From assembly GCA_022709545.1 (NCBI GenBank), contig JAKLIP010000002.1:62001-126000 (forward strand): a DNA stretch of 64,000 nucleotides, given 5' to 3'. The notes under the pieces were generated by a model. The model was given only the letters and a program-made list of their open reading frames with translations, was not told where the DNA came from and searched no databases. Every line of letters starts with the position of its first letter. The stretch's first letter is position 1. This DNA comes from Patescibacteria group bacterium. Lineage in GTDB: Bacteria > Patescibacteriota > Minisyncoccia > Moranbacterales > GWC2-37-73. The position numbers and the translations under genes are program-made. Below are positions 309-33,045 of this stretch, one piece after another.

Positions 309-320
309 ATCACCTCCTTT
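309..320 (-). promoter_or_regulatory. Orphan near-perfect Shine-Dalgarno sequence
   Basis: On the minus strand AAAGGAGGTGAT, complementary to the usual 16S rRNA 3' end, overlaps the stop of the radical SAM gene. No ATG follows within a useful distance. Using the embedded GTG gives only a 9-codon frame (M-I-K-T-G-Q-Y-G-K). It may be a ribosome loading or stand-by site for the peptide gene 82 bases on, or a relic of a lost start. Confidence 0.4.
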
Positions 321-1366
321 CATTTATGACAATGCAACAAGCATTGGGGATCATGTTTAAAATCACTGCCAGTTGCAACATACGCAACCGCTCTGCATCC
401 CCGACAGTATTTCAAAAGTTTACACTCTCGACATCCTTCAATTTCCTCAACTCTTCGATACTTTTCCATTTTTGGATTATCAACAAAATGATAAAGGAAA
501 TTGCTTTGTGGACTCCATTTTCCTATGGTACTGCCTGGATGTCGCCTGCATGCCATCAATGTTTTGTCTGGCAACATCGTCATAGTAGACGATCCCATTC
601 CACATCCCCCACTAACAACGCCCTGTTCAATACCAAGGGAATCCTGCCGACAAATAGAAATAAGCGGTTCTTTTCTGAGCTGTTTATATCCTTTCTTCTC
701 ATATTGCAGATGCTCTTCCAAAATTTTCTTTATAAATCGCATGTACTCGTTAGCTGGAATACCACAATCCCCCTGATTCGGAACCCAGCGAGCAAACATC
801 CAGTGCTGAGCGCCATTTTCATAAACGGCTTTCATGACATCAAACATTTCTCGAAAGTTGTGTGCAGAAAGAGTGGACATGATATATGCTGGTATTCCTG
901 CTTTAGAAAGATCCCTAATAGCTTGCATGGTTCTTTGAAAACTGCCTTTGTATCTGATTTCATCATGCTTTTTTTCCATACCATCTATAGATAGTTGGAA
1001 ATGCTTTAGGTTAAGCTTCGCCAACATTGAAATATTTCTTTCATCGAGAAGTTCTGGGTTTCCTAGAATGCTAACACAACTAAATTTGGTCAAAGATTGA
1101 GAGGCTGCCTTAACTTTAGCCAAAATGTCCCAAAAATGATTATGAAGCATCGGATCACCGCCTGTCAGTGCAATAACTGGTAGAGCATCGAATGCGTCGC
1201 AACACTCTATAAAATCACCTATAATTGCATCAGCATCGTCCAATCTCACGTCCTCTCCTTGGTGCGCATGCTGGTAGCAATGTTTGCATCCATTATTGCA
1301 TTTGTTGGTCAAATGCCATTGAAGATAAATTCGATTTTTTTTTTCAGGGCATTCTTCTTTCATCAT
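320..1366 (-). CDS. Radical SAM/SPASM peptide-modifying enzyme
   Basis: The 348-residue protein has the radical SAM cluster motif C23-x3-C27-x2-C30, followed by TGGDP (68-72) for SAM binding. The C-terminal third carries a SPASM-type auxiliary iron-sulfur domain: C255, C273, then C312-x2-C315-x5-C321-x2-C324 and C342-x3-C346. SPASM maturases of this size commonly install thioether or C-C links in short peptides. The start follows AAGGAGGT, which overlaps the hisS stop, so translation is probably coupled to hisS. The next gene encodes a Cys-containing 46-residue peptide, the obvious candidate substrate. No RRE (PqqD-like) domain is evident in the protein. An anaerobic sulfatase-maturase-like role is possible, but no sulfatase is present in the window. 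Confidence 0.88.
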   Translation of the reverse strand: MMKEECPEKKNRIYLQWHLTNKCNNGCKHCYQHAHQGEDVRLDDADAIIGDFIECCDAFDALPVIALTGGDPMLHNHFWDILAKVKAASQSLTKFSCVSILGNPELLDERNISMLAKLNLKHFQLSIDGMEKKHDEIRYKGSFQRTMQAIRDLSKAGIPAYIMSTLSAHNFREMFDVMKAVYENGAQHWMFARWVPNQGDCGIPANEYMRFIKKILEEHLQYEKKGYKQLRKEPLISICRQDSLGIEQGVVSGGCGMGSSTMTMLPDKTLMACRRHPGSTIGKWSPQSNFLYHFVDNPKMEKYRRVEEIEGCRECKLLKYCRGCRAVAYVATGSDFKHDPQCLLHCHK

Positions 1367-3855: not shown

Positions 3856-4647
3856 TTAGAATTGGACTCTTACGCCTGCATATAAGATGTCCTCTGAAAG
3901 CCCGCCATTTTCAGGCTCATATCCCATACGTTTCTGGTATGCAATTTCGGGCGCCAATGTTACTGATTCAATTACCCACGGAAAGGAAACTGATACTTTG
4001 CCTGAACTTATTATCTCCTCTCTGGTACCAAATACCGTACCATGACCGCCGAATGAAATGTCTATTCTTAGGTTTTCATGCAAATCAAAGGTTGAACCAA
4101 CCCGATAAATAAAACCGTTTTGTTCTCTTTCTCCATCCACACAGTCATAAATAAATTTCGCATACGGAGTAATTTTCTCCGTTAATGCATAACTGAACTT
4201 CAAATTGAAAGAATGAATGTCTCCATTTCCCCACTTGTTTAAAGGAAACAACTTGTAATAGGCATAGGATGCATCAACTTTTACTTTCTCAAAATCCTTT
4301 GCCCACCCCAGAATGAAATCAATTTCATTTCCGGCATTGTTCCCCTCGCCATTGTCCGATGTCGGACTTTGGCCAGGAGCGATCGATCCCCACACACTGG
4401 CATAAATTCCAGAGGGATTATGAGAAACAGTTACACAGGGCTGAATAATCAAGCCCCTGTAATAAACTCCGCCATCATCGCCCACATAGGCGTTGCTGGC
4501 GAAAACCTCACCGGAAATTCCAAAATTTGATTCAGACAAAATTTCGTCATCCCCTGCGTAATCTGCATCCGCAGCTTTGAAATCAAACGCAAACGCAAAC
4601 TTCGCTGAAAAAACTATCATAATAACCAAATAGAGTATTCTCCTCAT
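3856..4647 (-). CDS. Exported beta-barrel-like (TorF/porin-like) protein
   Basis: 263 residues. A classical signal peptide (MRRILYLVIMIVFSAKFAFA, 1-20) is followed by alternating polar/hydrophobic strands such as YRGLIIQPCVTVSHNPSGIYASVWGS and VKVDASYAYYKLFPL. The last residues are GVRVQF, ending in Phe as Gram-negative outer-membrane barrels do. The Y-R-G-...-SGIYASVWGS pattern resembles the TorF family of putative porins. The gene has AGGAGGGAG as ribosome binding site, a perfect promoter and its own terminator. It is odd in a lineage thought to lack an outer membrane. Options are recent transfer, a non-CPR host, or a barrel used differently. The family call is from pattern recognition only. 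Confidence 0.65.
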   Translation of the reverse strand: MRRILYLVIMIVFSAKFAFAFDFKAADADYAGDDEILSESNFGISGEVFASNAYVGDDGGVYYRGLIIQPCVTVSHNPSGIYASVWGSIAPGQSPTSDNGEGNNAGNEIDFILGWAKDFEKVKVDASYAYYKLFPLNKWGNGDIHSFNLKFSYALTEKITPYAKFIYDCVDGEREQNGFIYRVGSTFDLHENLRIDISFGGHGTVFGTREEIISSGKVSVSFPWVIESVTLAPEIAYQKRMGYEPENGGLSEDILYAGVRVQF

Positions 4648-4717
4648 TATTTCTCCCTCCTATATAAACATTTTTTTATTTTTAAGTTTACAGTTGTCAC
4701 CTTAATGGTAACTTTTT

Positions 4718-4746
4718 ATTATACTCCTAAAAACCAATTTTGTCAA
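4718..4746 (-). promoter_or_regulatory. Consensus promoter of the beta-barrel-like gene
   Basis: On the minus strand TTGACA (4741-4746) and TATAAT (4718-4723) are both perfect and exactly 17 bases apart. A leader of about 65 nt would precede the ATG at 4647. Confidence 0.85.
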
Positions 4747-8788: not shown

Positions 8789-8854
8789 AAAAAATAAGTT
8801 ATAGATTTCTTTAAGAATAATAACAAATTTAAAGCCTGATTGTCCAATAAAAAA

Positions 8855-8881
8855 GGCCGTGTACTCTATTGAGTACCGGCC
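8855..8881 (-). terminator. Terminator of the two-peptide unit
   Basis: GGCCG-GTACTC pairs with GAGTAC-(A)-CGGCC around a 4-nt loop and is followed on the minus strand by TTTTTTATT. It closes the small transcription unit at 8900-9205 and precedes proS. Confidence 0.85.
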
Positions 8882-8899
8882 CAATCTGAAAACAGATTT

Positions 8900-9055
8900 T
8901 TATTTGTGGATGACCCGGGATAATTTTATCCCGAAATCTTTTTGCGACATTCTTATTTTTTTCGGCGGGATTACCACGTCTTTAAAAAAATCGCATATTG
9001 TTTGAGAAACACTTTTTTTCTCTAATTTTAATCTGCTAAGATTATTTTTCGACAT
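8900..9055 (-). CDS. 51-residue unrecognised small protein
   Basis: 51 codons plus TAA, with AAGGAGG four bases before ATG. It starts M-S-K-N-N-L-S-R-L-K, has one Cys (TICDFFKDVVIPP) and a basic end (SRVIHK). It is the second gene of a unit with its own promoter and terminator. The coding end contains a perfect 18-bp palindrome (8916-8933, CGGGATAA/TTATCCCG) that could act in the mRNA or as an operator. I do not recognise the family. The central DFFKDVVIPPKKIRMSQKDFGIKL stretch could fold as a small helical domain. Confidence 0.65.
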   Translation of the reverse strand: MSKNNLSRLKLEKKSVSQTICDFFKDVVIPPKKIRMSQKDFGIKLSRVIHK

Positions 9056-9094
9056 AATGCCTCCTTCTTGAAAAACTTCTAAATAACTTCTTTC

Positions 9095-9205
9095 TCAAAC
9101 CCTCTTCTTTTTTATCTTTTTTTTCAATTTTATTAAAGGAAAAATCCTGCAGAACCAGCATTTTTTCCTTCTTCTCACAAGAAATGGATTACCTGGTCCT
9201 GACAT
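9095..9205 (-). CDS. 36-residue very basic peptide with CWFC motif
   Basis: 36 codons plus TGA, with AGGAGGG before the ATG at a workable spacing. It starts M-S-G-P-G-N-P-F, then RRRKKCWFCR, then a hydrophobic-basic tail rich in Lys. The C-x2-C pair in a basic context recalls the N-terminus of some S18 proteins or a metal-binding knuckle, but it is too short for either family. It is the first gene of the unit. It could be a nucleic-acid-binding or membrane-active peptide; that is speculation. Confidence 0.62.
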   Translation of the reverse strand: MSGPGNPFLVRRRKKCWFCRIFPLIKLKKKIKKKRV

Positions 9206-9250
9206 ATTTTTCCCTCCTAAGATTTTAGATTAATTTATTCTTAATTACAA

Positions 9251-9279
9251 ATGATACTGAATAAAAAGGCTTTTGTCAA
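9251..9279 (-). promoter_or_regulatory. Promoter of the two-peptide unit
   Basis: On the minus strand TTGACA (9274-9279) and TATCAT (9251-9256) are 17 bases apart. Transcription would start near 9244, 39 bases before the first small gene. Confidence 0.8.
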
Positions 9280-32900: not shown

Positions 32901-32912
32901 GATATTATTTGC

Positions 32913-33045
32913 AATTAAAAAATCTGCGTTTCCACAGATCGACCTTTGTTACCAAAAACATTAAAATGTTTCTGATATTCCTCGATGGGTATTACGCTTT
33001 TTTACAGCCTCCCATTGTCTGCGGACTTACTATATTAAATTTTCC
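32913..33045 (-). promoter_or_regulatory. L10 leader RNA with terminator-like hairpin
   Basis: The transcribed strand carries CCGCAGACAATGGGAGGCTG and TAATACCCATCGAGGAAT, close to the conserved L10-binding leader. It ends in a 7-bp stem ATCTGTG/CGCAGAT capped by GAAA and followed by six T (32917-32939). This suits autoregulation by L10 with an attenuation step. Confidence 0.72.

What the first reader, a model, noticed from the sequence alone, without database searches (positions are those of the whole stretch)
8855..9279. Stand-alone two-peptide transcription unit
A 425-base interval carries a TTGACA-17-TATCAT promoter, two short genes (36 and 51 codons) with strong SD sites and a textbook terminator. 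The first product is very basic with a CWFC knuckle, the second has one Cys and a coding-end palindrome of 18 bp. Such compact units are typical of bacteriocin-like, toxin-antitoxin or regulatory small-protein pairs, but neither peptide is recognised.
Basis: partly seen in the sequence, partly recalled or inferred. Interest (0 to 1): 0.65.

Follow-up and report, generated by a model that had tools for sequence, protein, structure and literature searches.

The report
Orphan two-gene small-peptide operon
This is a real-looking but lineage-specific pair of tiny basic-protein genes with unusually strong expression signals in a Moranbacteria (CPR) genome; it has no detectable relatives, and its main interest is that it belongs to a wider set of mostly small accessory genes there that carry strong ribosome-binding sites while the core genes do not.

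Summary
The unit is real and lies on the minus strand: TTGACA-17-TATCAT promoter, two ATG frames of 36 and 51 codons each with AGGAGG, an intrinsic terminator, then an independent proS promoter. None of 20,000 dinucleotide shuffles gives two such SD-led frames. Neither peptide has a convincing relative: Pfam, NCBIfam, PHROGs and PADLOC give nothing above noise (51-mer also PDB), nor do 131 genomes of the order (51-mer also 384 of the class), phages, or (51-mer and joined read-through) IMG/VR. Conservation therefore cannot be tested, and codon usage alone is inconclusive. The nearest relative with the same glycosyltransferase-proS neighbourhood carries a different SD-led small gene there, so the spacer looks like a turnover site. 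Core genes in this window avoid Shine-Dalgarno sites although the anti-SD is intact; strong promoter plus AGGAGG leaders mark mostly small accessory genes across the family (83 matches in 19 genomes, 4 in control). The pair is a typical member of that set. Toxin-antitoxin, bacteriocin and proS-attenuator readings are not supported. Best reading: an expressed, lineage-restricted bicistronic operon for two small basic, probably nucleic-acid or ribosome-associated proteins, ORF1's start partly buried in an RNA hairpin. Function is inferred from charge only.

The parts
9251..9279 (-). promoter TTGACA-17-TATCAT (-35 9279-9274, -10 9256-9251)
   Evidence: 11 of 12 consensus, same promoter-leader-SD geometry at 83 places in 19 family genomes against 4 in the reversed-pattern control
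9213..9218 (-). Shine-Dalgarno 1, AGGAGG, 7 nt before ATG
   Evidence: anti-SD sequence GGATCACCTCCTTT present in the genome
9095..9205 (-). ORF1, 36 aa, MSGPGNPFLVRRRKKCWFCRIFPLIKLKKKIKKKRV, net charge +14, stop TGA
   Evidence: no convincing family or homolog
9135..9216 (-). RNA hairpin pairing the SD1/AUG1 strand with ORF1 codons, about -31 kcal/mol
   Evidence: z -4.3; top 0.3% of 90-nt folds in the window; SD1 mean unpaired probability 0.13
9060..9065 (-). Shine-Dalgarno 2, AGGAGG (AAGGAGG), 4 nt before ATG
   Evidence: mean unpaired probability 0.49
8900..9055 (-). ORF2, 51 aa, MSKNNLSRLKLEKKSVSQTICDFFKDVVIPPKKIRMSQKDFGIKLSRVIHK, net charge +9, stop TAA
   Evidence: no homolog
8916..8933 (.). 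18-bp perfect palindrome in the last codons of ORF2; on the + strand it is followed by AAATCTTTTT
8849..8882 (-). intrinsic terminator: hairpin 8882-8854 with one bulge, then U tract
   Evidence: -20.1 kcal/mol
8817..8846 (-). separate promoter of proS (TGGACA-18-TATTAT) just after the terminator; similar sequence before proS in L029 and L047

Best explanation
A genuine, expressed bicistronic operon of two lineage-restricted small proteins, one example of a set of accessory genes in this Moranbacteria family that combine a consensus sigma-70 promoter, a 15-45 nt leader and a strong AGGAGG site. RNA polymerase starts near 9244 (inferred from the -10). ORF2 would be translated from its own fairly open SD2. 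ORF1 would be translated less or conditionally, because SD1/AUG1 are partly paired in a hairpin (predicted). Transcription ends at 8854-8849, which insulates the separately promoted proS gene. From their charge, lack of signal peptide or obvious membrane segment and lack of partner genes, both products are most likely small nucleic-acid or ribosome-associated basic proteins (inferred, weak). Shown: sequence elements, excess over chance, membership of the SD-led set, absence of detected relatives. Inferred: transcription, translation, function.
For: Elements in order and spacing. 0 of 20,000 shuffles give two SD-led ORFs. AGGAGG-N3-9-ATG is in excess genome-wide (93 against 39 in the reversed-pattern control), and the sites with an open frame outside large genes are mostly small genes, many with TTGACA-like promoters about 40-70 nt upstream of the ATG; the unit's promoter is 45 nt upstream. 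The composite promoter-leader-AGGAGG occurs 13 times in this genome against 0 in control, and 83 against 4 in 19 family genomes; most fetched instances precede plausible genes with a 4-8 nt SD spacing. The anti-SD sequence is present in the genome. Core genes lack SD: 32 of 49 have no match of 3 nt or more, against 35% of upstream background; proS has at most a 4-nt match in 16 loci from this genome and its family. In L029/L081 the same glycosyltransferase-proS spacer holds a different SD-led 81-aa zinc-ribbon-like gene.
Against: No homolog, hence no test of selection on either frame. Codon-usage scores are below those of real genes (0.21 and 0.13 bits per codon against about 0.32 for gene starts) and some shifted frames score higher. 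Strong RNA folding (z -3.8; 2 of 60 random segments as low) leaves room for an RNA role. SD burial is not special to this unit: several other members of the set show 0.11-0.28 unpaired. The function rests on charge alone, and single-sequence AlphaFold models are too weak to add to it.
Confidence: 0.6

Rival explanations
1. The unit is chiefly a structured regulatory RNA; the two frames are incidental or only help translation-coupled folding.
For: The transcript folds better than shuffles (z -5.4 with terminator; -3.5 to -3.8 without), with a strong 5' hairpin (z -4.3). Codon scores are ambiguous.
Against: Two AGGAGG-ATG starts each with an open frame are very unlikely by chance. No Rfam family matches at gathering score and only sub-threshold noise appears at E up to 10. 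No similar DNA in relatives except short low-complexity matches. 2 of 60 random segments fold as well.
Confidence: 0.13
2. A toxin-antitoxin module: ORF1 a small toxin, controlled by ORF2 or by start-site sequestration (type I-like).
For: Two-gene compact operon; ORF1 is short with a hydrophobic patch and basic tail; its SD lies in a stable hairpin.
Against: Both products are basic. No PADLOC match. No promoter-like site on the opposite strand across the unit. No transmembrane-length hydrophobic segment in the sequence; amphipathic moment of ORF1 no better than shuffled. No homologous module elsewhere.
Confidence: 0.08
3. A leader or attenuator of proS: ORF2 carries two adjacent proline codons (CCG CCG) and is followed by a terminator and the prolyl-tRNA synthetase gene.
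For: Position directly upstream of proS on the same strand...IPPKK... in ORF2; terminator between.
Against: proS has its own promoter after the terminator, with similar sequence before proS in L029 and L047, which lack these ORFs. The proline codons lie more than 70 nt before the terminator. No competing antiterminator appears in the folds that include the terminator. No T-box or other Rfam leader.
Confidence: 0.06
4. One gene of about 101 codons split by an in-frame TGA (pseudogene, sequencing error or recoding).
For: ORF1 and ORF2 share one frame with 13 open codons between them and a single TGA.
Against: Coincidence of frame and open gap has about a 12% chance (my estimate: 1/3 for frame times about 0.38 for 13 open codons). 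ORF2 has its own AAGGAGG and ATG at proper spacing. TGA ends other genes in the window. No full-length relative with the read-through as query.
Confidence: 0.08

Closest known systems
Lineage-restricted (ORFan) small-protein genes of bacteria
   Same: Short, no detectable homologs, stand-alone promoter and terminator, strong ribosome-binding sites, placed between conserved genes.
   Different: Two cistrons in one unit; lies in a genome whose core genes avoid Shine-Dalgarno sites, so its signals stand out more than usual.
SD-led small accessory genes of the same genome and family (e.g. L029 81-aa zinc-ribbon-like ORF; L195, L208, L216)
   Same: TTGACA-type promoter about 42-70 nt upstream in the G000 examples (L195, L208, L216), AGGAGG or AGGAG site, small product, mostly no Pfam match; the L029 gene occupies the same genomic slot.
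   Different: No sequence similarity; only this unit and L250 showed a second substantial SD-led frame directly behind the first.
Type I / type II toxin-antitoxin operons
   Same: Compact two-gene or hairpin-controlled small-peptide layout.
   Different: Both products basic, no antisense promoter found, no family match.
Amino-acid leader peptides and attenuators upstream of aminoacyl-tRNA synthetases
   Same: Small ORF with consecutive cognate codons and terminator upstream of proS.
   Different: proS has its own downstream promoter; no antiterminator seen; ORFs absent before proS in relatives.

Membership tests
SD-led accessory gene set of this Moranbacteria family | TTGACA-N16-18-TANNNT, 15-45 nt leader, AGGAGG | tested here: met
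   one search lists the unit (G000:C10:71213-71279) among 13 such sites in its genome, 0 in control
SD-led accessory gene set of this Moranbacteria family | open ATG frame at proper spacing from the SD | tested here: met
   7 nt for ORF1, 4 nt for ORF2
Conserved protein family (any) | detectable sequence relatives | tested here: not met
Type II toxin-antitoxin | toxin or antitoxin family match; acidic antitoxin with basic toxin | tested here: not met
   charges +14 and +9
Type I toxin-antitoxin | antisense RNA promoter on the opposite strand | tested here: not met
   no promoter-like site on the + strand between 8341 and 9414 (consensus scan only)
Type I toxin-antitoxin | small membrane-active toxin | tested here: inconclusive
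   best 18-residue moment 0.36, reached by 40% of shuffles; helix 17-35 from a single sequence
Bacteriocin / RiPP cluster | nearby transporter, immunity or modification genes | tested here: not met
   neighbours are glycosyltransferase 2, DUF2304, proS, and ispH- and ispG-like genes (the last three named from their translations)
aaRS attenuator | synthetase transcribed by read-through of the leader terminator | tested here: not met
   separate proS promoter after the terminator with similar sequence before proS in two other loci (inferred from sequence; transcription not measured)
Ribosomal protein bS18 (considered for the CxxC basic peptide) | PF01084 match | tested here: not met
   no match; true bS18 lies on G000:C11
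Expressed small protein | transcript and ribosome or peptide evidence | not testable with these tools
   needs RNA-seq, Ribo-seq or mass spectrometry

The most novel reading that the evidence does not exclude
Moranbacteria run two regimes of gene start: core genes that avoid Shine-Dalgarno sites despite an intact anti-SD core, and a fast-turnover set of mostly small orphan genes that carry consensus promoters and strong SD sites, possibly acting on the host cell or under special conditions. The pair here is one such cassette in an exchangeable slot between a glycosyltransferase gene and proS.
Probability: 0.35. Interest if true: 0.6.

Novelty: new member of a known kind. Interest (0 to 1): 0.3.

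Why it matters
On its own it is one more orphan small-protein operon in an uncultured CPR lineage. If the wider pattern holds, strong SD plus consensus promoter would be a simple signature for finding expressed accessory small genes in genomes where core genes lack SD sites, giving a short list of candidates for host-interaction or regulatory small proteins.

Tried and rejected
bS18-like ribosomal protein (suggested by the CxxC basic start): no Pfam match and the real bS18 is on another contig. Rfam leaders or sRNAs: none at threshold, only sub-threshold noise at E up to 10. Weak class-level hits for ORF2 in G367 and G410 (E about 0.008 per genome over 384 genomes) lie in long open frames that do not look like related proteins and are taken as chance. 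Lysine-rich hits for ORF1 (E 0.002-0.1) are low-complexity noise, some with stops. DNA hits in 6 relatives are 24-39 nt low-complexity matches. HTH-like look of the ORF2 C-terminus (MSQKDFGIKLSRV): no Pfam support, and the single-sequence model shows only one helix, 16-27. SD1 sequestration as a special switch: similar values occur in other members of the set. Fold search not run because both models are low confidence. The boxA-like motif noticed in some relatives' leaders was found in none of the 39 leaders held as loci.

Full report
Observation. The 425-base interval is as described, but on the minus strand. Reading 5' to 3' on that strand: TTGACA (9279-9274), 17 nt, TATCAT (9256-9251), a leader of about 30 nt, AGGAGG (9218-9213), ORF1 of 36 codons (9205-9095), a 39-nt gap that contains a second AGGAGG (9065-9060), ORF2 of 51 codons (9055-8900) whose last codons contain an 18-bp palindrome, then a terminator hairpin with one bulged base (8882-8854, -20.1 kcal/mol) and a U tract. 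Right after it comes TGGACA-18-TATTAT (8846-8817), the promoter of proS. Similar sequence stands before proS in a relative with the same neighbourhood (L029) and in a second proS copy of the binned genome (L047).

Chance. Of 20,000 dinucleotide-preserving shuffles of the unit none had two AGGAGG-ATG frames of 30 aa or more and 31 had one. In the 64-kb window no other ATG frame of 30-70 aa has GGAGG in the 16 nt before its start. Codon usage is less helpful: both frames score above the mean of arbitrary ORFs but below real genes, and some shifted frames score as high, because the DNA is A-rich.

Relatives. The organism belongs with Candidatus Moranbacteria, judged by proS (80% to GW2011_GWE2_35_2-, 76% to UBA1362). 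Neither peptide has a convincing match in Pfam, NCBIfam, PHROGs or PADLOC (one PHROGs hit of unknown function at E 0.07), nor has ORF2 in PDB sequences. There is none in 131 genomes of the order, and none for ORF2 in 384 of the class beyond chance. ORF2 gave one insignificant hit in phage records (E 3) and ORF1 none; ORF2 and the joined read-through gave none in IMG/VR, and ORF2 none in plasmids. In the closest relative with the same glycosyltransferase-proS neighbourhood (L029/L081) the spacer holds another gene with a strong SD, an 81-aa zinc-ribbon-like protein. The slot seems to be kept while the small gene in it changes.

Setting. The key context is the contrast with the core genes. Of 49 window genes, 32 have no SD match of 3 nt or more, against 35% expected from local upstream DNA, and none exceeds 5 nt; proS has at most 4 nt in 16 loci from this genome and its family. 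The sequence GGATCACCTCCTTT, taken as the 16S 3' end with its anti-SD, is present in this genome and in 14 other family genomes. AGGAGG followed by ATG is nevertheless in excess (93 against 39 in the reversed-pattern control), and the sites with an open frame outside large genes mostly precede small genes, many with a TTGACA-type promoter 40-70 nt upstream. Of 8 such small proteins scanned, 7 have no Pfam match at E 0.01 and one has a sub-threshold HNH match. Some members are recognisable, such as a bS21-like protein and cell-wall amidase-like proteins (my reading of the translations). The composite promoter-leader-AGGAGG occurs 83 times in 19 family genomes against 4 in control, 13 against 0 in this genome. 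The unit in hand has this geometry.

Mechanism. RNA folding predicts a hairpin (9216-9135, z -4.3) that pairs SD1 and the first start codon with downstream codons of ORF1; SD1 is about 13% unpaired and SD2 about 49%. This suggests that ORF2 is made more readily than ORF1, or that ORF1 is conditional. Similar SD burial in other members of the set means this should not be over-read. Both products are basic (+14, +9). The most economical guess is nucleic-acid or ribosome association; this is inference. Single-sequence AlphaFold models are weak (mean pLDDT 74.7 for ORF1, 69.7 for ORF2).

Rivals. A structured RNA is possible, but the fold is not exceptional for this window (2 of 60 random segments as strong) and does not explain two SD-led frames. 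A toxin-antitoxin pair lacks family matches, charge complementarity and an antisense promoter. A proS attenuator is contradicted by the separate proS promoter. A split single gene is possible because both ORFs share a frame, but ORF2 has its own start signals. Paper searches found nothing on promoter or SD usage in Moranbacteria in the held library. Nakagawa et al. 2017 (PMC5397173) report that the fraction of genes lacking SD varies between species and link non-SD genes partly to leaderless mRNAs; only its abstract was read here.

Verdict. It is an ordinary kind of thing, a lineage-restricted small-protein operon, with a wider pattern behind it that may be worth more than the unit itself.

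Noticed in passing
whole genome G000 and 18 family genomes; window 5624-60436: Core genes avoid Shine-Dalgarno sites although the anti-SD core is intact, while a set of mostly small accessory genes carries consensus promoters and AGGAGG.
   Followed up: partly
G004:C19:75899, G005:C8:2353, G013:C62:598, G003:C6:107806, G015:C12:27301: Leaders of some SD-led genes in relatives contain TTCTTTAA, resembling the boxA antitermination element; seen by eye in 5 of 83 leaders, in none of the 39 leaders held as loci.
   Followed up: partly
G000:C2:5032-6258 and G000:C15:14468-15145: Second copies of proS (70%) and of the family-2 glycosyltransferase (78%) in the same binned genome, probably contamination from a related organism (listed contamination 9.59%).
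   Followed up: partly
window 3856-4746: A 263-aa protein with signal-peptide-like start and outer-membrane-barrel look, with perfect TTGACA-17-TATAAT and AGGAGG, unusual for a CPR genome; possible horizontal or mis-binned origin.
   Followed up: no
window 320-1366: Radical-SAM-like gene (CxxxCxxC-type motif, Cys-rich C-terminus) with AAGGAGG upstream, next to a hisS-like gene.
   Followed up: no
window 32908-33042: Rfam L10 leader (RF00557) upstream of the ribosomal protein L10 gene.
   Followed up: no
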